Assembly: GCF_025685425.1 (NCBI RefSeq)
Contig: NZ_JAGTAS010000052.1
Span: 1 to 64,000 of the forward strand
Direction: 5' to 3'
Length of the DNA stretch: 64,000 nucleotides
DNA from: Terriglobus albidus
GTDB lineage: Bacteria > Acidobacteriota > Terriglobia > Terriglobales > Acidobacteriaceae
Part shown: piece by piece, positions 183-9,793 of the stretch
Position numbering within the stretch: the stretch's first letter is position 1
Layout: every line of letters starts with the position of its first letter
Made by a program: the position numbers and the translations under genes
The notes under the pieces: model-generated
Databases searched by the model: none
What the model saw: only the letters and a program-made list of their open reading frames with translations
What the model was told of the DNA's origin: nothing

Positions 183-1466
183 CTATGCGTCACGCACGAC
201 CTGGAAAAAATCCTCATCGCCCATCTGTCCACCCTTGAGTGCAAGTTCGATATCGAGTGCACCATGCGTGCGGCAAAGAGGAACGCCGGTATGAAGATTG
301 GCCTGCCAGGTAAGTGCCCTGAGTCCAAGCTGCCGAACCGCGTGCGAGCTGGTATCGCCACCGCAAAGCAGAACACGCGAGATGTGAGTAGCCTGCACAA
401 TCTGACGCATCATGACGCCGAGGAGTTCGCCCAGGGTTGACCCCGATGCCGGCCCGCTGACCGGCCCCATCGCACTGTAAAGCACGGTATCCCTTCCCTG
501 CCCTATGGACTGAATAGCCTGAGCAACCACGGCCTGCTGACGGCTTGCATCTCCAAGGAGTTCCTCTGGATCGAGGGCGATGCCTGCGAAACCATGCGCT
601 AGTGCCCAACGAAGTTGCCGTTCTGTAGCAACAGAGCAGGAGCCGCTCAGAGCCAGGAGAGGTCCTCGCACCTTCGGGGGCAATGACACGTCTGATCTAG
701 AAACAAAATTCAAGCCGACATCGCGCCACGCCTCTACCAAAGCTGCGGTCAACCCTGAGCTTCCAACCGCAAACATCTGCTGTTGTCCGGCGGCCCGCCA
801 GAGAAGCTTGCCTATCGTCCTCAGTTCGGGTGCATGCACTGTATCAAAGAGCACGGCATCCGCACCTGCGGTCGTGGCTTTCGCAAAGGCGCCGAATCCA
901 TCTCCTCTGCGAATGTTCCGGTAGTCCACATGGTCTATCCGGAGTGTCGTCTGTGCACAGAGATGTTTGCGCAGATCCGCTTCCCGCATCGGCGTCACAG
1001 GATGACGGCTCATCGCGTGCCGATCGATACGCAACACCCTGCCATCAGGGCCGGCAGCGTACAAGCGTCCTCGCCACACATATCGCCGAAGATGAGGAGC
1101 ACCCACAACGATGGGCACCGTGTGTCCGTCAAAGCTCTCTCGGCCGATCTCCATCGCGCAGCCGATACTCCCGATCGACGGTGACGAGTCGAAGGTGGAG
1201 CAAACCTTGTAGTGCGTGATGGGAGCGCCCGCTGCCCGCGACGAACGGAAGACTGCGGGAAGGTTTTGCTTCATCCACTCCGGTGACTGGGAACGGCTCT
1301 CTCCGGCGATTCCATAGGCGCGGAGCTCCGGAACCAATGCCAGGTCTTCAACCGTCGGTGGAGCGAAAAACAACGCGGCAGGAATGCCACCGCGGGCAAG
1401 CTGCTCCAGCACATCAGTGGAACCAGTAAAGTCGTCGCCGTAATAGGTATAAAGCAGGTCTCGCAT
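183..1466 (-). CDS. DUF1537 four-carbon acid sugar kinase, candidate 3-oxo-isoapionate kinase
   Basis: This 427-residue cytoplasmic protein belongs to the four-carbon acid sugar kinase family. The N-terminal sugar-binding domain opens with YYGDDFTGSTD (about residues 8-18). The C-terminal nucleotide-binding domain carries GGDTSSHAV near residue 370, and SSGLTAALVEAW lies near residue 240. Known members phosphorylate L-threonate, D-erythronate or 3-oxo-isoapionate. It starts 5 bp after the stop of the RuBisCO-like gene, with GGAG about 10 nt before the ATG. The RLP neighbour favours the 3-oxo-isoapionate kinase (OiaK) role, but substrate cannot be read from sequence alone. It is the last gene of a five-gene leftward operon. 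Confidence 0.85.
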   Translation of the reverse strand: MRDLLYTYYGDDFTGSTDVLEQLARGGIPAALFFAPPTVEDLALVPELRAYGIAGESRSQSPEWMKQNLPAVFRSSRAAGAPITHYKVCSTFDSSPSIGSIGCAMEIGRESFDGHTVPIVVGAPHLRRYVWRGRLYAAGPDGRVLRIDRHAMSRHPVTPMREADLRKHLCAQTTLRIDHVDYRNIRRGDGFGAFAKATTAGADAVLFDTVHAPELRTIGKLLWRAAGQQQMFAVGSSGLTAALVEAWRDVGLNFVSRSDVSLPPKVRGPLLALSGSCSVATERQLRWALAHGFAGIALDPEELLGDASRQQAVVAQAIQSIGQGRDTVLYSAMGPVSGPASGSTLGELLGVMMRQIVQATHISRVLLCGGDTSSHAVRQLGLRALTWQANLHTGVPLCRTHGALDIELALKGGQMGDEDFFQVVRDA

Positions 1467-1471
1467 GCGAC

Positions 1472-2743
1472 TCAGGCTCCGAAGAGCTCAAGGGCCTGTG
1501 CCAGCTCGTGATGGCGGGTTGCGAACGCAGCCAGAGAGACGCCTTCAACAGCAGCCTGCCAGGCCTGCTGCAGACTGCGCACACCTGCAGCCGGACCTCC
1601 GGGATGTCCCATGATTCCTCCGCCACAGGCATAGATCAGATCTGTGCATCCAAGGGCCTTATAGGTATCGGGCGCCTGACGCGCACTTTGTCCCGATGAG
1701 AAGACAGGCATGATCTCGCAGCCGGGCGAAGGCGCCGGAAACATCGGCGTAAGGCAGGCTCGGGCGGACGCAATGACCGACTCATCGCTCTCGCAGAATT
1801 TATTGCGCAATCCATTCACATGCGTGTGATCGATGCCGGCAAGCCGCCACAGCTTGCTGAAGGCAACGAAGCTCATCCCCAGGACAGGCGATCGGCCAAG
1901 CATTCCCCAGCCATTGCGATGGCCGTGGATCGGAACCTGTGCATGTGCGCGAAGAACCTTCATCGCCGGCAGACCGATAGAGTTCATGCTCACCATGACA
2001 GATAGTCCGCCTTCGGCGACAACGTGGTCATGACGCCGCAGCATCTCATCGATCTCCCCGGTCAGATTCGGCGCGTACATCACCTGCTTCCCTGTCCGCT
2101 CCGCAAACTCCCGCAAGACACGCATCACTGCCGAGACGCGCTCTTCAAACGGACAGTGCACTCCATCGGTCTGCAGCTCATCATCCTTGATGAAGTCGAT
2201 GCCCGCTTCGGCCAGCACGCGTACTTGCGCAGCCGTAGTCTCCGGATCCATGCCGATGCTGGGCTTGATGATCGTGCCGATCAGCGGTCGCCCGTACACG
2301 CCTGTCAGCGACCGCGTGCCTTGGACGCCAAACTGTGGCCCCTGGTACCGCGAAAGAAATTCGGCCGGCAGTTCCAGATCCAGAAGTTTCAAACCGGAAA
2401 ACGTCTTCAATTCCGAAAGATTGCCGGCAACAGTTGCGAGAAGATTCGGCAGTGAAGGGCCGATATTCTCAAGCGGCCATGAGAGCGTGACTTCTGCCGT
2501 ACGCCGAACCCCATCCCAGTTCTTTGGTGTTCCGGCGCCTGGCAACGAGGGAACAGCGACCGCCTCTCTCTCGACGATGAGTTCGACCTGCGCGGCAAAG
2601 CGCTCACGCAAGGCCTCCGTCTCTCCAGGAACACGAAGAAACGTTCCCGTGGACTGCTCACCGGCCATGGTCTCCGCTGCCTGCTCCAACGGAAAGGCTG
2701 TTTCGATGAAGTAGCGTGCACAGATACGCGGATGAGTGCTCAT
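1472..2743 (-). CDS. RuBisCO-like protein (RLP)
   Basis: This 423-residue protein has the RuBisCO large-subunit fold. The active-site lysine is in GTIIKPSIGM (K160). The metal-binding set KDDE is in FIKDDEL (K186, D188, E189, equivalent to K201/D203/E204 of RuBisCO). HGHR (H275, R276) and DHTH (H306, H308) follow, and GGGIMGHPGG forms the C-terminal phosphate site. The loop-6 region reads GLRNKF, unlike the GKLEG of true carboxylases, so I do not expect CO2 fixation. RLPs beside DUF1537 kinases act on 3-oxo-isoapionate 4-phosphate, as decarboxylase (OiaC) or transcarboxylase/hydrolase (OiaX). Which of the two applies here is unknown. It lies 12 bp after GH127 and 5 bp before the kinase. Confidence 0.85.
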   Translation of the reverse strand: MSTHPRICARYFIETAFPLEQAAETMAGEQSTGTFLRVPGETEALRERFAAQVELIVEREAVAVPSLPGAGTPKNWDGVRRTAEVTLSWPLENIGPSLPNLLATVAGNLSELKTFSGLKLLDLELPAEFLSRYQGPQFGVQGTRSLTGVYGRPLIGTIIKPSIGMDPETTAAQVRVLAEAGIDFIKDDELQTDGVHCPFEERVSAVMRVLREFAERTGKQVMYAPNLTGEIDEMLRRHDHVVAEGGLSVMVSMNSIGLPAMKVLRAHAQVPIHGHRNGWGMLGRSPVLGMSFVAFSKLWRLAGIDHTHVNGLRNKFCESDESVIASARACLTPMFPAPSPGCEIMPVFSSGQSARQAPDTYKALGCTDLIYACGGGIMGHPGGPAAGVRSLQQAWQAAVEGVSLAAFATRHHELAQALELFGA

Positions 2744-2755
2744 TCGGACCCCTCC

Positions 2756-4666
2756 TCAGCCGCGATAAAAATAGCTCGTGTAGCGCTCATTCTCGACGCG
2801 GTAAAGCGGAACAAAGACAGCATCCCGCCCCGCATACCGTTCGGTATAAGCCTGTGGGCCCGCGGCCTTCAGATTGGATGGCAGCGGTAGCTTCGCGTGT
2901 GCCTCGGCGGCGGGGATATTCAGCGCAACATACTGCACCGGGCCGCGCATCAGGGCGACCACATCCGGGTTCCGGTCATCGATGCTTTCGGTGCGGAAGT
3001 CCTGGGGAAGCATCAGCTCCACGCGATCCCCCGCCTTCCAGCGGCGGCGCAGCGCATAGAACGTTCCAGCGGAAGCACTGGCCGTTTCCACCTTTCCGTT
3101 CACACGGATGGTGGCAGGCCGCTGCAGCCAGCCGGGAATACGAAGGTGCAACGCAAAGGTCGCTTCCCTGGCAGGGTACACAGTCAGCATTACGTGATCG
3201 TCGATGGGATACTGCGTCTCCTGGGTCAGAACGACAGCAAGATCCTTCACCTGGGTCTGTACGCGAGATGGCGCATAGAGCGTGACATACAAGCCATCGT
3301 CCGCACCGAAGTAGAGATTGAGCGGGTAATCCGCTACCGTCTGCACCAGCGTGCCGGAACAGCAGGGCTACTTCTGCTTGTAATAGACCTTCTCCGCGTA
3401 GGGCCCGTAGGTGGAGTAATACGGATAGCGGCCCTCTGAATCTGGCCGCTTCACTCCGAGTATTGTGTTGAAGAGAACGCGCTCCAGGTTGTCGGCATAG
3501 GCCGTGTCCTGCGGAACTCCGGTACGCAGCAGATACCGCGCAAGCTTGGTTGCAGCATAAGCGCCACAGGGAGTCTCAAAGTGATCGACCGTGCTGCTGA
3601 GCGATGCATACAGCTCGCCACGATGGGGAGTAATGAAGGTCTCGTTTGGTCCCCAGCCGCCGCTGGAGAACTGCTGCGTCATGGTCAGCAGCAGAAAGGC
3701 ATGGCGCATGGCATCGCGGTACTTTGTATCTCCAAGCGCGAGATATGCGCTGCCTCCGGAAGAGAGCGCAATCGCGTGCGAGTACGCATGCTGGCCGGGG
3801 AAAGGATCTTCCGTACGGGCAAGCCGATCGAAGAACTCGCGGTCTAGCAGATATCGCACCGCATACTCGCGGAACGCCGGGTTCCCCGTGGCCTCGGCCG
3901 CAGCGAAAAGATTCTCCGGCATGATGTATGTCTCGTCATACGGAGGGTCTTTCTTACCGATACGATCGCGTCCCTGTGCCGGCAGAAGAGGCTTCGCTCC
4001 ATCGAAGACACGATTCAAGAGGTCGTTCGTACCGGGAACCCTGGACAGCGTTCCCGCATCCAGCAGGCCGATCAAGTGCTTGTCGAGCGTGTAGCAAGTC
4101 CAGAGATTTGTCTCCGGCCGAAGGATACTGACATTCTGCGGTCCAAGCGTCGCTGCAAAGCCTTCTACGAGATCATGAGCTTTGGCGTGGCAAACCTCAT
4201 CTCCTGTAGCTGCCCCCATACGGGCCATACCGGAGATGTACTGCCCAAGACTGTGGCCAGGAACGAAGCCATCGCGGTCATACCAGCCGCCCATATCGTC
4301 ACCGGGCGCAGGCAGACCTGCACGCTGCCGATAGACCTTCAGCAGCCGGTCGTTCGAGAGGGAAAGGTAATGTGCCTTGAGCGCAAAGTATTGCTCGGCA
4401 AAGGGACCGCCCGTCAACTGTACTTCGCCGTACTGCAATTGGCGCAGCGGAGCACGATCGGCGCTCTGATCCACCGCAGCTTCAGCTCCGATCGCCGTTG
4501 CGGCAACGGTCATCGCGGAGGTCTTCAGAAATTCTCGACGGGTAAAGCTTTTTCCCTGTAGGTGTGGAGTAGGGCATCCGCATCTGTGGGCGTTTTCCGC
4601 AATGAAAACGCCGCTGCACTCCTCTTTCGGGCTACCCAGCAACAGGGAAAATGCTCTAAAGCTCAC
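2756..4666 (-). pseudogene. GH127 (DUF1680) beta-L-arabinofuranosidase-like gene with in-frame TAG
   Basis: One continuous frame of about 636 codons, the normal GH127 length, is interrupted by a single TAG at 3370-3368. Upstream reads GPYAEKVYYKQK; downstream reads PCCSGTLVQTVADYPLN without any frame change. The adjacent cysteines (codons at 3364-3359) match the metal/nucleophile Cys pair of GH127, and FETPCG upstream probably supplies the other ligands, so the stop splits the active site. TRREFLK followed by an Ala-rich stretch is a Tat signal, but no ATG precedes it in frame. The only start is GTG 4666, which makes the first roughly 36 residues a translation of repeat copy A. The 432-residue upstream product should be inactive. 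A sequencing error (TGG to TAG) or suppression remains possible. Confidence 0.8.
4545..4657. repeat. MITE-like palindromic repeat, copy A
   Basis: An imperfect palindrome of about 113 bp. The right end is ACAGGGAAAATGCTCT and the left end, AAGCTTTTTCCCTGT, is its degenerate complement. The centre is GGCGTTTTCCGCAATG with a facing GAAAACGCC. It lies over the 5' end of the GH127 frame and encodes that frame's N-terminal residues. It has the same orientation as the copy at 55667-55780 and the opposite orientation to those at 48429 and 51607. Confidence 0.75.
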
Positions 4667-4750
4667 GGTCTCTCTCGTTTCCTGCTACGCAACGGAAGGA
4701 TAAAACACGGTGAAGATGATTTGCCGCATGTGCTGACATTCAGAACACGA

Positions 4751-4765
4751 TTCCGGGATGCGGAA
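4751..4765. promoter_or_regulatory. Putative operator TTCCG-N5-CGGAA upstream of GH127
   Basis: This is a perfect 5-bp inverted repeat with a 5-nt spacer in the 117-bp gap between the MFS stop and the GH127 start. It is followed by CTCCAT. A near-identical site (TTCCA-N5-CGGAA then CTCCCAT) lies in the divergent promoter region at 6863-6877 of the same locus. Two related sites inside one locus suggest a shared local regulator. No regulator gene is visible in the locus. Confidence 0.4.
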
Positions 4766-4783
4766 CTCCATTTATGTCAGGTT

Positions 4784-6055
4784 TTATGCCAGGTCTTCAG
4801 CCACATCCAGACCGCGTGTGCAGTCCACACGTGCAAAGATCACCGCAGCCAGCAGGATCATGGCGGCAATCATCCGCACTGGAAGATCGTAGTTCCCGGC
4901 AAACTTCACGACGTAGCCGAAAACGATGGTGCATACCCAGCCACCGAGGTTTCCCGCGGTATTCATCACGCCGGAGGCGGTGCCGCCAAAGTTGCCGCCA
5001 AGCCCCATCGCCATGGCCCAGGCCGACGGCAGCATCAGGTCCATCACACCGAAGCCCGCTGTCGCCAACACGATGATGCCTGTGTGTGTCTGGACCGCGG
5101 TCATGCCATACAACAAGCAAGCCGCAACACTAAGGCAGATTGCCGTCACCCAGCGATAGGATCTGCGCCGGCCAAAGCGTATGACCAGCCACTCCGACAG
5201 CACTCCACCTGTGAGATTGCCTGCCAGTCCCATCAGGAATGGCAGCGATGCCCAGATGCCCATCTCTGCCACAGTGAAGTGGGCACTGCGCACCAGCCAG
5301 GTCGTAAACCATCCAAAGAAGAACCAGCTCCCCCACGCATAGCAGAAGTAAGCCACTGATAGCAGCCATAGATCCGGTAGACGGAAGAGCCGCGACCACG
5401 GAACCTTCTCCTGCAGCTCTGAATCTTGATAGCCGGCCGAGGTGACTGTTGGGGAACCGATTTCAATCAGCTCCTCCATGTCAATGCCGGGCATAGTCTC
5501 TGGGCTTTCGCGAAACAGAAACAGCCATAGGGCAACCCAAACAAATCCGATCGCGCCCATGCACCAGAAGATTCCACGCCAGCCCACAGATCGCGCTAAC
5601 GGCACAAGCAGCAGCGGCGCCAGCGCTCCGCCAAGCCTGCTGGCGCCCCACACGAAACCCTGCGCACGCGCATGTTCCTTTTTAGGGAACCAGCGGCTGA
5701 TGACACCGGCCGCGTTCGGATAGGCTCCTGCGGCTCCCATGCCGAAGAGGAAGCGTGACGCCGCGATCTGCAGAAAACTGCGGCACCATCCCGTCATCGC
5801 TGTGAAGAAGCTCCACCAGGTGACGATGCGTGCGAGCTCTTTGCGTCGGCCGTGCCGGTCTCCCATGGCTCCGGATGGAATCTCGAAGATGGCGTTTGCC
5901 AGGATGTAGGCTCCGAGCACCCATCCCCACTGCTCTTCCGAGAGATGAAGATCGTTGCGGATGCCGCTCTCGGCAACCGGCAAAGCCAGCCGGTCCAGAA
6001 ACGTAATGATGCTGAGGGCACACAACAGCATCAGCACCATGTGGCGCTTCTTCAA
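4784..6055 (-). CDS. MFS transporter, anion:cation symporter (hexuronate-type) family
   Basis: A 12-helix inner-membrane permease of about 423 residues. The conserved MFS loop between helices 2 and 3 reads GAMGDRHGRRKE, and early residues FLDRLALPVAE resemble ExuT/GudP-type sugar-acid symporters. I chose TTG 6055 as start because GGAGG sits 7 nt before it, while the ATG at 6040 has only a weak purine run. The TTG overlaps the TGA of the racemase-like gene, giving translational coupling. Its place in the operon suggests uptake of the sugar or sugar acid processed by the RLP and kinase. The substrate itself is inferred from context only. Confidence 0.85.
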   Translation of the reverse strand: MKKRHMVLMLLCALSIITFLDRLALPVAESGIRNDLHLSEEQWGWVLGAYILANAIFEIPSGAMGDRHGRRKELARIVTWWSFFTAMTGWCRSFLQIAASRFLFGMGAAGAYPNAAGVISRWFPKKEHARAQGFVWGASRLGGALAPLLLVPLARSVGWRGIFWCMGAIGFVWVALWLFLFRESPETMPGIDMEELIEIGSPTVTSAGYQDSELQEKVPWSRLFRLPDLWLLSVAYFCYAWGSWFFFGWFTTWLVRSAHFTVAEMGIWASLPFLMGLAGNLTGGVLSEWLVIRFGRRRSYRWVTAICLSVAACLLYGMTAVQTHTGIIVLATAGFGVMDLMLPSAWAMAMGLGGNFGGTASGVMNTAGNLGGWVCTIVFGYVVKFAGNYDLPVRMIAAMILLAAVIFARVDCTRGLDVAEDLA

Positions 6056-6753
6056 ACAGCAACCTCCACAGGCTTGCCCAGCAACACGTCGCAAGCGTGC
6101 AGCACATCCCGAGCGCGCAACACGGCAAGCTCAGGCGAGCTCAATACGGGTATGGGCAAAGCGCCCGGTCCCATGGCCTGCACAACTCGCGCCATGCTGG
6201 CCTGCGCCAACACAACAACATCCACGTTCTTCATCTCCTCCAGCAATGCCTTCGACAGAATACGATCATGAGTCGCGGTATCGCCGGCGAGCACGGCTTC
6301 GAACGCTCCATCGCAGAGCGATGAGACCAACTCTACTTTCTTTCCTGCCGCATCAGCCTTGTCGTGTAGTAGCGCCAGCGTCGGCTCCAACGTGGTGCGC
6401 AGGGTCGCCATGACACCGATGCGGCTTCCACGCCGCACAGCCTCTTCGGCCATGGCATCATCCACGCGGATCACGGGAATATCCATCACCTGCCGCCCAA
6501 TACGAACACCTGCCCCAATAGAAGAACAGGTCACCATCACAGCATCCGCGCCTGCGTCCTGCGCCGACTGCAGCGTGGCCAATAGACGCCGGATCGTCAC
6601 CCGTCGCAGCGCACCATGGCGGATGGTGTCTTTGATCAGGCTCTCATCCACCATATGAAAGACATTGACCCCGCTCAGATGCTGCGAGCACAGCGCGCCA
6701 AAGATAGGCGTTAGCGTAGGGCTGGTATGAATCAGAGCGAGTGTCTGGGGCAC
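6052..6753 (-). CDS. Asp/Glu/hydantoin racemase family protein lacking the second cysteine
   Basis: A 233-residue protein of the aspartate/glutamate racemase fold, a duplicated Rossmann-like domain. The first catalytic cysteine is present in VMVTCSS (C76). The second motif, usually LGC, reads VVLAQASM, so alanine (A185) stands where the second cysteine is expected. Two-base racemisation is therefore unlikely. Single-cysteine relatives such as arylmalonate decarboxylase and maleate isomerase do other chemistry, although arylmalonate decarboxylase keeps the opposite cysteine. It is the first gene of the operon and overlaps the MFS start. A step on a branched-chain sugar acid is plausible from context but unproven. 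Confidence 0.75.
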   Translation of the reverse strand: MPQTLALIHTSPTLTPIFGALCSQHLSGVNVFHMVDESLIKDTIRHGALRRVTIRRLLATLQSAQDAGADAVMVTCSSIGAGVRIGRQVMDIPVIRVDDAMAEEAVRRGSRIGVMATLRTTLEPTLALLHDKADAAGKKVELVSSLCDGAFEAVLAGDTATHDRILSKALLEEMKNVDVVVLAQASMARVVQAMGPGALPIPVLSSPELAVLRARDVLHACDVLLGKPVEVAV

Positions 6754-6839
6754 GAGAAGGACTCCTTGCAGAAGGTAGGTCTGGTTCTATCTTGCCCTTC
6801 ATCGGATGTAAAGCGTGCAGTGCAGAAATCCCGCAATCA

Positions 6840-6877
6840 TTCCGCTATGATTCACTCCGGAATTCCATCTTGCGGAA
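6840..6877. promoter_or_regulatory. Cluster of TTCCG/CGGAA half-sites in the divergent intergenic region
   Basis: The 233-bp gap 6754-6986 separates the leftward operon from the rightward glycosidases and must hold both promoters. It contains TTCCG at 6840, CGGAA at 6858 and TTCCA-N5-CGGAA at 6863-6877. The last matches the site at 4751-4765 in arm sequence, spacing and the CTCC(C)AT that follows. The rest of the gap shows nothing else I can call. The operator role is inferred. Confidence 0.4.
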
Positions 6878-6986
6878 CTCCCATGCCCAGGGACAGGCAA
6901 AGAACCAAAGCTTTGAGAGAGATCACCGTTGCACTTGCCACTCGGCGCAACCCACGTGTACTTCTACTGTGAACTGTGGAGACACA

Positions 6987-8147
6987 ATGATTCGCACTAA
7001 CCGCCGCGAGTTTCTCGCCATGGTAACCGCCGCCGCACTTTCGCCGGCGGCAATGGCACAGGATGATCCGGCCGCTCCGTTTCGGACACCGTACAAATAT
7101 CCAAAGCTCATTCTCGCTCCAGCCAATCCGTCCATTCCGAGTAATGCTCCCGCCGGAAGCGAGGTCTTCGACTCACGCGGAGTAGATGACCCAATCGTCT
7201 TTCGCGCCGGCGGCGCCTTCTACATGCTGTACATCGGCTTCGACGGAATCGGATATCAGACCGGCCTCGCCAGCAGCAATGATCTCGTGACATGGAAACG
7301 CGAAGGAAACGTCGGCCCACGCGATCCAAATTCGAAGTACACACGGTTCAACCTGGCGATCAGCACGATTCTGCGCGATAAGAACCTTCATGGACGCGGC
7401 GACGCAATTAAGGTCGATGGTCAGTATCTCGCGGCCTGGCATGCCTATCCTGCTGCCGGTTACGAGTCCGGTCCCGCCGTCATCGGCCTGGCGCGCTCTC
7501 GCGATCTTCGACATTGGACACTCACGGAACCGATCCTCCGCCCTGAAGAAGGAGCGGCGTGGGAACGTGGCGGCCTGTACCGTCCGGACGTCTTCGTCGA
7601 CGAGTACGAGGGGAAGCGGACTTATTTTCTCTACTACAACGCGAAGACAGAAACCCTTCCGAAGGATGAGGGCGGAGGTTGGCATGAGCAGAGTGGAGTC
7701 GCTACCAGTACCGATCTGGTGCACTGGACACGATCGCCGCTCAACCCTCTTTTGGAGAATGGCCCCCGTGGGGCGGGAACTTATCCTAAAGGCAGCCCAA
7801 TTGCCGCGAGCGCTCCTTCTGCCGACGCGCGTGACAGCCGCTTTGCCTCAAACCCGTACGTCATGAAGTGGGGTTCGAGCTATGCGATGTACTACTTCGG
7901 TTTCAACTACGAACGCCCGGGTCGCGCCCGTGAGCTGCTCGCATTGGGCCTCGATCCCTTTCATTTCCAGAAGGCGCCGGAGGTGCTGATCGATACCGGT
8001 GCGCCGGGTTCCATCGACGAGACGTTCGCCCATAAGCCATCGCTGATCTATCACGAAGGTGCGCTTTACCACTTTTACTGCGCCGTCTCGGGCAAATATC
8101 CAAATGAGGTTCGCGGCGTCGCCGTCGCACGGTCCAAACCATGGTGA
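6987..8147 (+). CDS. Exported GH43-like five-bladed propeller glycosidase
   Basis: A 386-residue protein starting at ATG 6987 with GGAG 7 nt upstream; a longer open frame runs further 5' but lacks these signals. It begins with a twin-arginine signal, NRREFLAMV followed by AAALSPAAMAQ. The body shows repeated propeller blades of the GH43/GH32/GH130 type: VDDPIVFRAGGAFYMLYIGF, SNDLVTWKREG, RPDVFVDEYEG, STDLVHWTRSP. Asp in VDDP and Asp/Glu in later blades are candidate catalytic residues. The exact family and substrate are not resolved. Its stop overlaps the GH29 start by 7 bp, so the two are co-translated. Confidence 0.7.
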   Translation: MIRTNRREFLAMVTAAALSPAAMAQDDPAAPFRTPYKYPKLILAPANPSIPSNAPAGSEVFDSRGVDDPIVFRAGGAFYMLYIGFDGIGYQTGLASSNDLVTWKREGNVGPRDPNSKYTRFNLAISTILRDKNLHGRGDAIKVDGQYLAAWHAYPAAGYESGPAVIGLARSRDLRHWTLTEPILRPEEGAAWERGGLYRPDVFVDEYEGKRTYFLYYNAKTETLPKDEGGGWHEQSGVATSTDLVHWTRSPLNPLLENGPRGAGTYPKGSPIAASAPSADARDSRFASNPYVMKWGSSYAMYYFGFNYERPGRARELLALGLDPFHFQKAPEVLIDTGAPGSIDETFAHKPSLIYHEGALYHFYCAVSGKYPNEVRGVAVARSKPW

Positions 8148-9793
8148 GATTCACTCTTTTGAAGAACACGGCCATTACGGGTTTAGCGGCCTTGCCATTC
8201 ATCGCCGCCTCTGCAGTGGCCCAGACACAGGCAATCCACGACAAGACAGTCGCGGCACAGGTCAGCAGGGTGCAGCGTTACACGGCAGCGGCCAAGCCAT
8301 TCGCAGCCAACTGGGACTCGCTGGCGGCCTATCGCACACCGACATGGTTTCAGGATGCGAAGTTCGGCATCTTCATTCACTGGGGCGTCTACTCCGTTCC
8401 TGCCTTCGCCAACGAATGGTACTCGCGGAATATGTACGTCCCGGGCAACAAGGCCTACGAACATCACATCGCCACCTACGGACCGCAAAGCAAGTTCGGC
8501 TACAAGGACTTCATCCCGATGTTTCGTGCGGAGCACTTCGATGCCAATGCCTGGGTTGACCTTTTCCAGAAAGCTGGAGCGCGCTATATCGTTCCCGTAG
8601 GCGAACACTGCGATGGCTTCGCCATGTATGCCTCCGATGTAACACCGTGGAATGCCAAAGCCATGGGGCCGCATCGCGACATCGTCGGCGAGCTTTCCGC
8701 CGCGACGCGATCACACGGGCTGAAGTTTGGTGTCTCCTCGCACACCGCCGAACACTGGTGGTGGTATGGCCTTGGCCGCACCTTCGACTCCGACGTGCGG
8801 GCCATGAGCTCCACTGCGTCGAACGGACTGCCACCCACATCGCTACTGTACGGCCCCGCATCCCCAAGGAACCTTCCCGCGGCAGACGGCGCCGTAGACG
8901 ATCGCAAAGAGCCTGATCCCGATCATCTTGAACGCTGGGCGCCTCCCAGCCAGGAGTTCCTGAACGAATGGCTGGCAAAATCAACCGAGATCGTCGATAA
9001 GTACCACCCGGACTTCATGTACTTCGATTGGTGGATTGGCCAACCTGCTTTCAAACCCGCACTGCAGCAATTCGCCGCTTACTACTATGACCGCGGCGCC
9101 GAGCGGCACGAACAGCCGGTGCTTACCTACAAACAGGAGTCGATGCCCGCCAACGTTGCCACCCTGGACATCGAACGTGGCAAGCTCGACACCCTTCGCC
9201 TGCTGCCCTGGCAGACAGATACCTCGGTCTCCATTCACTCCTGGGGATATGCAGAACATGATGAGTACCGCACGGCGAAATCACTCGTGCATCAACTCGT
9301 TGATACCGTCTCCAAGAACGGCAACCTGCTGCTGAACGTTGGACCGAAGGCCGATGGCACCATTCCCGAAGAAGCCAGAACGGTTCTGTCGCAGATAGGC
9401 GACTGGCTGCGAGTAAACGGCGAGAGTATCTACGGAACACGCCCCTTTACCGTCTTTGGCGAAGGCCCAACCAAAGCGCCAAAGAACGCAACCGAGAAGA
9501 ACAACGATATCCAGAACTACACGGCTCAGGACATCCGCTTCACCGTCTCGCATGGCCGCAGCGAGCCATTGCTCTATGCCACTCTTCTGGGATGGCAATC
9601 CGAAACCGTCATCCACACACTCTTCGCAGGAAATCCATACCTTCCTGGCACGGTGTGTGCTGTCGATCTGCTAGGTGGCCAATCAAAACTGACCTTTCAG
9701 CAGCGGCCAGATGGATTGCACGTCACCATGCCGTCCGCAGAAGGACTAGGCGATATCGCATACGTGTTGCGCATCCATACGCGTTGCAAGTAA
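8141..9793 (+). CDS. Alpha-L-fucosidase, GH29
   Basis: A 550-residue secreted GH29 enzyme with an N-terminal signal peptide (LAALPFIAASAVAQ). Family landmarks are WFQDAKFGIFIHWGVYS near residue 68, EHCDGFAMY near residue 150 and FDWWIGQPAF, whose Asp (about D296) is the expected nucleophile. LLLNVGPKADG marks the end of the catalytic barrel, and a beta-rich C-terminal domain follows. It releases alpha-L-fucose from plant or other glycans in the periplasm. It overlaps the upstream glycosidase gene. No lipobox is visible. Fucose occurs in xyloglucan and in RG-II, which fits but does not prove a pectin-directed locus. Confidence 0.9.
   Translation: MVRFTLLKNTAITGLAALPFIAASAVAQTQAIHDKTVAAQVSRVQRYTAAAKPFAANWDSLAAYRTPTWFQDAKFGIFIHWGVYSVPAFANEWYSRNMYVPGNKAYEHHIATYGPQSKFGYKDFIPMFRAEHFDANAWVDLFQKAGARYIVPVGEHCDGFAMYASDVTPWNAKAMGPHRDIVGELSAATRSHGLKFGVSSHTAEHWWWYGLGRTFDSDVRAMSSTASNGLPPTSLLYGPASPRNLPAADGAVDDRKEPDPDHLERWAPPSQEFLNEWLAKSTEIVDKYHPDFMYFDWWIGQPAFKPALQQFAAYYYDRGAERHEQPVLTYKQESMPANVATLDIERGKLDTLRLLPWQTDTSVSIHSWGYAEHDEYRTAKSLVHQLVDTVSKNGNLLLNVGPKADGTIPEEARTVLSQIGDWLRVNGESIYGTRPFTVFGEGPTKAPKNATEKNNDIQNYTAQDIRFTVSHGRSEPLLYATLLGWQSETVIHTLFAGNPYLPGTVCAVDLLGGQSKLTFQQRPDGLHVTMPSAEGLGDIAYVLRIHTRCK

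What the first reader, a model, noticed from the sequence alone, without database searches (positions are those of the whole stretch)
183..9793. Candidate D-apiose/isoapionate catabolic locus in an acidobacterium
The sequence shows an RLP (K160, K186-D188-E189 set, non-carboxylase loop 6) five bases from a DUF1537 kinase, with a sugar-acid MFS permease, a racemase-like protein, GH127, a GH43-like enzyme and GH29. RLP plus DUF1537 kinase is the published core of the 3-oxo-isoapionate branch of apiose breakdown (OiaK with OiaC or OiaX). Apiose occurs in RG-II, which also carries beta-L-arabinofuranose and fucose, matching GH127 and GH29. The apiose dehydrogenase and lactonase genes are not in the window, so the link is inferred. 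The racemase-like gene would be a new partner for this pathway.
Basis: partly seen in the sequence, partly recalled or inferred. Interest (0 to 1): 0.7.

Follow-up and report, generated by a model that had tools for sequence, protein, structure and literature searches.

The report
Three-enzyme pathway for a pectin sugar-acid
A soil acidobacterium carries a small gene cluster that probably takes up an acidic sugar cut from the plant pectin RG-II, perhaps aceric acid, and breaks it down with a racemase-like protein, a kinase and a RuBisCO-like protein; this would be a new use of the RuBisCO fold, not the known apiose route.

Summary
The genes are real. On the minus strand lie a PF01177 racemase-like protein (RAC), MFS permease, GH127 (interrupted by an in-frame stop), RLP and DUF1537 kinase; divergent to them are a GH137-like enzyme (not GH43) and GH29. 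RLP and kinase score best against the OiaX and OiaK models of apiose catabolism, below NCBI's cut-offs. The apiose reading fails in the host genome: no D-apionate lactonase, no ApnO-like oxidoisomerase, no strong apiosidase. RAC tracks RLP: 7 of 7 RLP genomes among 199 Acidobacteriaceae have a close RAC. RLP, kinase and RAC recur together in Acidobacteriota, sphingomonads, Ramlibacter, Rufibacter and a haloarchaeon. In three RLP-free relatives a RAC homologue adjoins 3-oxo-tetronate kinase. RAC therefore most likely works next to the kinase, making the beta-keto acid it phosphorylates. In the RG-II setting the best substrate is aceric acid, whose ketose is 3-oxo-isoapionate with CH2OH replaced by CHOHCH3; RAC, kinase and RLP would give 3-phosphoglycerate plus lactate without a dehydrogenase. 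The module is well supported; RAC's reaction and the substrate are inferred, and RAC also occurs beside apiose genes in other bacteria.

The parts
6052..6753 (-). RAC: single-cysteine Asp/Glu racemase-superfamily protein (PF01177); proposed alpha-ketol/aldose-ketose isomerase making the kinase's substrate
   Evidence: invariant C76; the second Cys position of hydantoin racemase 3qvj holds invariant Gln184; co-occurs with RLP
4784..6094 (-). MFS permease, sugar-acid (galactonate-transporter-like) type
   Evidence: TIGR00893 205 bits (below cut-off 395), PF07690; overlaps the RAC gene; conserved with RAC in relatives
2756..4666 (-). GH127 glycosidase with Tat signal, interrupted by an in-frame TAG at 3368-3370
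   Evidence: C-terminal piece matches aceric acid hydrolase NF049879 at 88 bits (cut-off 950); intact in relative G266
1472..2743 (-). RuBisCO-like protein, OiaX/OiaT superfamily; proposed C-C cleavage of the phosphorylated beta-keto acid
183..1466 (-). DUF1537 four-carbon-acid-sugar-type kinase, OiaK-like
6741..8147 (+). GH137-like beta-L-arabinofuranosidase (listed GTG start overlaps RAC and is probably too long)
   Evidence: relatives
8141..9793 (+). GH29 alpha-L-fucosidase-like enzyme
   Evidence: PF01120 350 bits

Best explanation
The cluster is an RG-II oligosaccharide utilisation locus whose only recognised intracellular metabolic enzymes form a short pathway: the MFS permease imports a sugar acid, RAC isomerises it to a beta-keto (alpha-hydroxy) acid, the DUF1537 kinase phosphorylates the CH2OH next to the ketone, and the RLP removes or transfers the carboxyl group and cleaves the product. 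The most likely substrate is aceric acid (3-C-carboxy-5-deoxy-L-xylose, RG-II side chain B). Its ketose, HOOC-C(OH)(CHOHCH3)-CO-CH2OH, is 3-oxo-isoapionate with CH2OH replaced by CHOHCH3. If the RLP acts like the Xanthobacter transcarboxylase/hydrolase, the products are 3-phosphoglycerate and L-lactate; if it only decarboxylates, 5-deoxypentulose 1-phosphate, which an aldolase would split to DHAP and acetaldehyde. Shown here: gene content, conserved linkage, absence of the known apiose genes, RLP clade and a clade-specific substitution, RAC active-site pattern. Inferred: RAC's reaction and its place before the kinase, the substrate, the products. The chemistry is recalled.
For: (1) RAC and RLP co-occur: in 297 Acidobacteriota genomes RLP in 8, RAC in 8, both in 6 (Fisher p 8.6e-10, not corrected for kinship); those 6 have no ApnO match, and the other two RLP genomes have ApnO and no RAC. 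In 199 Acidobacteriaceae, 7 of 7 RLP genomes have RAC at 334-371 bits and no other genome exceeds 243 (the two samples share five of these genomes; in G366 the two genes lie on different short contigs). (2) Recurrence: on an RLP tree of 95 rows RAC needs 8 changes against 23.1 for shuffles, 0 of 500 as low; adjoining RLP-kinase-RAC genes in Rufibacter; RAC-RLP-kinase near ABC permease genes in Ramlibacter; RAC near RLP-kinase in Natronosalvus. (3) In 3 of 3 RLP-free Acidobacteriaceae with a 236-243-bit RAC, it adjoins a 3-oxo-tetronate kinase (367-383 bits, cut-off 350); in two an OtnC-like decarboxylase (220 and 228 bits, just under cut-off 250) is there too. A Haladaptatus plasmid has RAC, DUF1537 kinase and class II aldolase together. 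This ties RAC to the kinase whatever cleaves the product. (4) No apiose genes in the host. (5) GH127 lies directly before RLP and tracks RAC: 11 of 18 RAC loci against 3 of 62 without RAC. In G260, by contrast, an apiosidase adjoins RLP, with kinase, ApnO and a Gfo/Idh gene near. (6) RG-II setting: GH137-like gene in the window; a BPa0997 relative (510 bits; BPa0997 as GH138 is recalled) in Bryocella, with a homologue beside G074's cluster; GH78, GH42 and GH106 in related loci. (7) RLP residue 225, next to conserved N226, is A/P/V/I in 19 of 19 of the GH127-RAC clade and F in 67 of 76 others. (8) RAC keeps one Cys and has Gln at the second Cys position, which suits one-base proton transfer better than racemisation (inference).
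Against: RAC also occurs with ApnO: 4 of 80 loci carry both. Seven sphingomonad genomes (G004-G010) have ApnO, ApnL and a single RLP; RAC is in six of their seven RLP loci (the seventh contig ends), and in six ApnO lies 15-27 kb from RLP on the same contig. G013 also has ApnO besides RAC. So RAC could be an accessory of apiose breakdown. Sphingomonas kyeonggiensis (G003) has RAC, RLP and strong apiosidases (353 and 342 bits) but neither ApnO nor ApnL. RAC with RLP in Ramlibacter and Natronosalvus is not in a pectin locus as far as annotated. The GH127 is not an orthologue of the aceric acid hydrolase model (87-109 bits against 950), and Bryocella's copy is nearer 5opj (127 bits) and 4qjy (76) than 5mqo (66). 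The GH127-RAC clade is one clade, so the residue-225 pattern and the GH127 link may each be single events; the sister rows L012 and L014 also have small residues there. Two ApnO-type Acidobacteriota RLPs score higher on the OiaX model (518, 569 bits). No aldose-ketose isomerase in PF01177 is known to me. No structure of RAC was obtained.
Confidence: 0.45

Rival explanations
1. Apiose breakdown: OiaK plus RLP act on 3-oxo-isoapionate 4-phosphate, and the dehydrogenase, lactonase and oxidoisomerase are unrelated proteins encoded elsewhere; RAC is an accessory.
For: RLP and kinase score best against OiaX and OiaK; active-site residues are those of RLPs in ApnO loci; RAC co-occurs with ApnO/ApnL in sphingomonads and with ApnO in L017, L018, L022 and L040; RG-II contains apiose.
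Against: No ApnL, no ApnO, no strong apiosidase in the host; none of the 6 module-bearing Acidobacteriaceae has ApnO. It would need unrelated replacements for each.
Confidence: 0.25
2. The same RAC-kinase-RLP module acts on another branched or linear sugar acid from RG-II or elsewhere, and RAC does a different step (epimerase of the RLP product, lactone or keto-acid chemistry).
For: RAC with RLP also lies outside pectin loci (Ramlibacter, Natronosalvus) and with OtnK/OtnC; RAC homologues in rhizobia lie by unrelated oxidoreductases.
Against: The window clade is tied to GH127 and RG-II enzymes; among RG-II sugars only apiose and aceric acid are branched (recalled chemistry).
Confidence: 0.22
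3. A decaying or chance assembly: GH127 is interrupted and the contig ends beside the kinase, so the locus may not work in this strain.
For: In-frame TAG in GH127; contig edge.
Against: The other six genes are open and 81-95% identical to an intact locus in the single-contig genome G266; the arrangement recurs across phyla.
Confidence: 0.08

Closest known systems
D-apiose catabolism via 3-oxo-isoapionate (OiaK with OiaX or OiaT; Carter et al. 2018, not held; seen only through PMC6302742 passages and NCBIfam; the name OiaT is recalled)
   Same: DUF1537 kinase plus RLP of the same superfamily, conserved RLP active site, RG-II context
   Different: No ApnL, ApnO or strong apiosidase in the host; PF01177 protein, MFS and GH127 instead; RLP 45% identical to an annotated OiaX and 62-64% to Ancylobacter/Xanthobacteraceae RLPs
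3-oxo-tetronate pathway (OtnK, OtnC; NCBIfam NF043035, NF043034)
   Same: DUF1537 kinase then decarboxylation of a beta-keto acid phosphate; a RAC homologue beside OtnK in three relatives
   Different: The window's cleaving enzyme is an RLP, not a class II aldolase-type decarboxylase; its kinase scores 187 against 350 on the OtnK model
Asp/Glu/hydantoin racemases (PF01177; hydantoin racemase 3qvj)
   Same: Family and first catalytic Cys
   Different: Second Cys position holds invariant Gln184; linked to sugar-acid kinases
Bacteroides RG-II degradation (GH137, GH138, GH127 aceric acid hydrolase BT1003)
   Same: Related GH137, GH138 and GH127 enzymes in the window or its relatives
   Different: GH127 only distantly like the aceric acid hydrolase model; proposed metabolic enzymes for the released acid are in the locus

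Membership tests
Apiose 3-oxo-isoapionate pathway | OiaK-type DUF1537 kinase | tested here: inconclusive
   Best NCBIfam model is OiaK, 393 bits, cut-off 700; four kinases of loci with ApnO score 426-575, also below
Apiose 3-oxo-isoapionate pathway | RLP decarboxylase/transcarboxylase (OiaX/OiaT) | tested here: inconclusive
   OiaX model 449 bits, cut-off 700; three RLPs of ApnO loci give 440-463, two others 518 and 569
Apiose 3-oxo-isoapionate pathway | D-apionate lactonase ApnL | tested here: not met
   0 matches in the host; 15 of 26 genomes in the same search match, 7 over cut-off
Apiose 3-oxo-isoapionate pathway | Oxidoisomerase ApnO (here the protein next to RLP-kinase, PF16896 in the member scanned; its identity as ApnO is inferred from context) | tested here: not met
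   Host only 27-28 bits; best hits of 385-534 bits in genomes that have it
Apiose 3-oxo-isoapionate pathway | Activity on 3-oxo-isoapionate | not testable with these tools
   needs enzyme assay
PF01177 two-cysteine racemases | Two catalytic cysteines | tested here: not met
   C76 present, second position is Gln184
Aceric acid hydrolase (NF049879) | Score over curated cut-off 950 | tested here: not met
   88 bits for the window's C-terminal piece; 87-109 in four intact relatives
GH137 (BT0996 N-terminal domain) | Sequence match to solved structures of that domain | tested here: met
   5mt2/5mui 76-77 bits, E about 1e-20; that these entries are BT0996 is recalled
Methionine-salvage RLP | Best match to MtnW models | tested here: not met
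   MtnW models 201 and 155 bits against 449 for OiaX

The most novel reading that the evidence does not exclude
A complete, redox-neutral catabolic pathway for aceric acid: a one-cysteine Asp/Glu-racemase-fold aldose-ketose isomerase, a DUF1537 kinase and a RuBisCO-like transcarboxylase/hydrolase turn it into 3-phosphoglycerate and L-lactate. The same racemase-fold isomerase serves as a general entry enzyme for DUF1537 kinase pathways that end in either an RLP or an OtnC decarboxylase.
Probability: 0.35. Interest if true: 0.85.

Novelty: new variant of a known kind. Interest (0 to 1): 0.68.

Why it matters
No paper on bacterial metabolism of free aceric acid showed up in the listings of my searches (titles and starts of abstracts of the papers listed, in an open-access library only). 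If the reading holds, it gives RuBisCO-like proteins a new physiological substrate, assigns a role to a single-cysteine branch of the racemase superfamily that recurs next to DUF1537 kinases, and explains how soil bacteria finish one of the oddest sugars of the plant cell wall. It also warns that 'RLP plus DUF1537 kinase' is not enough to annotate apiose use.

Tried and rejected
Apiose as substrate was tested by genome search and not supported in the host. Methionine salvage and threonate/erythronate kinase readings were tested with NCBIfam and rejected. GH43 was replaced by GH137-like. The idea that GH127 is a proven aceric acid hydrolase was dropped (scores far below cut-off). The idea that RAC simply replaces ApnO one for one was weakened by loci and genomes with both. 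Columns separating RLP sets were scanned twice, with different rules and sets: one search gave 32, 260 and 266, one search gave 82 and 225; I use only 225, for its place beside N226, with no structure to check it. Fisher tests ignore kinship. L007, L012 and L013 were left without the RAC label on the tree, and counted as lacking RAC, although their contigs end near by; L045, L067 and others were counted as they stood. Rows L040 and L064 of alignment A2 are partial.

The AlphaFold job for RAC had not returned at the last poll, so no fold search was run. One search found no solved relative of a conserved sphingomonad protein (c35). Several neighbours matched no Pfam model. Papers: PMC6302742, PMC13001218, PMC12168206 and PMC10850190 were seen as passages, PMC12282258 as passages and its abstract-plus-introduction section; all others only as listings.
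Full report
What is there. The window begins at base 1 of contig C56 of a 6.1-Mb genome in 58 contigs. On the minus strand, in transcription order, lie a PF01177 racemase-like gene (RAC, 6753-6052), an MFS permease (6094-4784), a GH127 gene (4666-2756), an RLP (2743-1472) and a DUF1537 kinase (1466-183), with 12 bases between GH127 and RLP and 5 between RLP and kinase; two hydrolase genes run the other way (6741-8147, 8141-9793). GH127 carries an in-frame TAG at 3368-3370; the same-genus genome G266, a single 6.4-Mb contig, has the gene open. The 'GH43-like' gene matches 5mt2 and 5mui (76-77 bits) and the first 350 of 1400 positions of NF049877, so I call it GH137-like.

RLP and kinase. The RLP keeps K160, K186, D188, E189 and a loop-6 Lys (K315) shared by all 15 RLPs compared. 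Its best NCBIfam model is OiaX (449 bits; cut-off 700); MtnW models give 201 and 155. It is 45% identical to an Agrobacterium RLP annotated OiaX and 62-64% to Ancylobacter and Xanthobacteraceae RLPs. [quoted passage not shown] by kinship the window RLP is more like the latter (inference; neither assayed protein was in hand). The kinase is OiaK-like (393 bits) rather than 3-oxo-tetronate (187) or D-threonate kinase (75).

Two kinds of neighbourhood. Of 80 RLP loci fetched (the 80 best of 468 relatives), 51 carry a protein of the c2 cluster (PF16896 in the one member scanned; probably ApnO by context, since no NCBIfam model named it), 18 carry RAC, 4 carry both, 14 carry GH127 (only within the stretches held, many cut by contig ends). 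RAC and GH127 go together (11 of 18 against 3 of 62, p 8e-7); RAC and c2 avoid each other (4 of 18 against 47 of 62, p 6e-5). These tests ignore kinship. In a c2-type locus from the same phylum (G260), RLP adjoins an apiosidase, with kinase, ApnO and a Gfo/Idh dehydrogenase near. In the window type RLP adjoins GH127.

Genome tests. The host has no ApnL, no ApnO and only 64- and 55-bit apiosidase matches. In 297 Acidobacteriota, RLP is in 8 genomes (E <= 1e-80), RAC in 8 (E <= 1e-30), ApnO in 5 (E <= 1e-50): 6 have RLP and RAC without ApnO, 2 have RLP and ApnO without RAC, and the two further RAC matches (G228, 162 bits; G212, 109 bits) have no RLP. In 199 Acidobacteriaceae RLP is in 7 and all 7 have RAC at 334-371 bits; three others have a RAC homologue at 236-243 bits without RLP. 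G366 and G486 of the seven were not tested for ApnO; the other five were. The two samples overlap, and G172 is the contig of L002, so these are not independent of the 80 loci. The searches score only the best candidates of a first look. Apiosidase (27 genomes): six Acidobacteriaceae (G000, G266, G074, G137, G298, Bryocella) reach at most 71 bits and G172 232; eight sphingomonads reach 340-371; two ApnO genomes (Ancylobacter) and two RLP genomes without ApnO (G012, G015) have none; one ApnO genome (G017) has 72. So apiosidase marks RG-II use rather than the apiose route as such.

What RAC does. In the three RLP-free genomes the RAC homologue adjoins a DUF1537 kinase that passes the OtnK cut-off (367-383 against 350), with an MFS gene and a PfkB-type kinase, and in G451 and G489 an OtnC-like decarboxylase (220 and 228 bits, just under 250) and a LacD/DeoC aldolase. 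A Haladaptatus plasmid has RAC (36% identical), DUF1537 kinase and class II aldolase together. Rufibacter has RLP, kinase and RAC as three adjoining genes followed by a bile-acid:sodium-symporter-family gene and a pectinesterase. So RAC keeps company with the kinase whichever enzyme cleaves the product. H9, D36, C76-S77-S78, D98, H162-D163, Q184, S186 and S206-P207 are among the positions invariant in all 14 RACs aligned (nine from RLP loci, four from OtnK/aldolase loci, one from R. etli). Against hydantoin racemase 3qvj, C76 aligns with the first Cys and Q184 with the second; 3qvk, which reads Ser at both places, suggests that these are its catalytic pair. A single-base enzyme suits a 1,2-proton transfer (aldose to ketose, or 2-oxo to 3-oxo acid) better than racemisation; this is inference.

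Why aceric acid. From recalled chemistry, aceric acid is 3-C-carboxy-5-deoxy-L-xylose. Moving its carbonyl from C1 to C2 gives the same hydroxy-keto acid head that OiaK and the apiose RLPs handle, with one extra carbon. No oxidation is needed, which fits a locus whose only recognised cytosolic metabolic enzymes are RAC, kinase and RLP. The transcarboxylase/hydrolase reaction would give 3-phosphoglycerate and L-lactate. RLP position 225, next to conserved N226, is small (A/P/V/I) in 19 of 19 of this clade, against Phe in 67 of 76 others, which could make room for the extra carbon; the sister rows L012 and L014 also have V and A, four haloarchaeal rows and L042 have Cys. RG-II as target is supported by the GH137-like gene, a BPa0997 (GH138, recalled) relative in Bryocella (510 bits), and GH106, GH78, GH42, GDSL esterase and RhaT genes in related loci. 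PMC12282258 (one section) describes RG-II chains A and B; PMC10850190 (passages) names BT1003 as an aceric acid hydrolase among GH127/GH146 enzymes.

Against this. RAC and ApnO coexist in sphingomonads, in L017, L018, L022 and L040, and in G013; there one RLP would serve both sugars, or RAC would serve apiose. S. kyeonggiensis has apiosidases and RAC but no ApnO or ApnL. Ramlibacter and Natronosalvus have RAC and RLP outside annotated pectin loci. GH127 here is far from the aceric acid hydrolase model. I therefore hold the RAC-kinase-RLP module at about 0.75 and aceric acid as its substrate at about 0.45.

Noticed in passing
L156, L157, L158 (genomes G451, G489, G332): Acidobacteriaceae loci with RAC homologue, OtnK, MFS and PfkB-type kinase; OtnC-like and LacD/DeoC aldolase in L156 and L157, GH31 in L157 and L158: an unassigned sugar pathway that recalls sulfo-glycolysis joined to the oxo-tetronate branch.
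   Followed up: partly
window 3368-3370: In-frame TAG inside GH127 immediately before its PCCSG motif; relatives are open there. Real or assembly error unknown.
   Followed up: partly
L095 14729-18678; L094 7040-8518: Glycolate-oxidase-like FAD-linked (PF01565/PF02913) and Fe-S (PF02754) genes next to ApnO in sphingomonad RG-II clusters, as expected if the RLP releases glycolate from apiose.
   Followed up: partly
L003 4162-5445; L124 14520-15707; L130 7498-8748: Regulator with IclR helix-turn-helix joined to a periplasmic sugar-binding domain (PF13407; scanned in L003), conserved beside the RLP cluster in Acidobacteriaceae.
   Followed up: no
L016 5731-6969; L128 12868-14451; L160 3038-4291; L027 17607-19466: CoA-transferase family III gene (PF02515 scanned in L016 and L027, the others by similarity) recurring near RAC-RLP loci of two phyla.
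   Followed up: no
L137, L138, L139, L140: Four haloarchaeal plasmids carry this RLP, three with a DUF1537 kinase beside it, with varied partners (RAC and SDR; ApnO-like and GntP; TRAP and aldolase; FGGY kinase and Fba), hinting at several substrates.
   Followed up: partly
L132, L141, L143: Rhizobial RAC homologues (46-50%) lie with FAD oxidoreductases, ABC transporter genes and (L143) putA, with no RLP in the stretches shown; otnK lies 8-9 kb away in L132 and L141.
   Followed up: no
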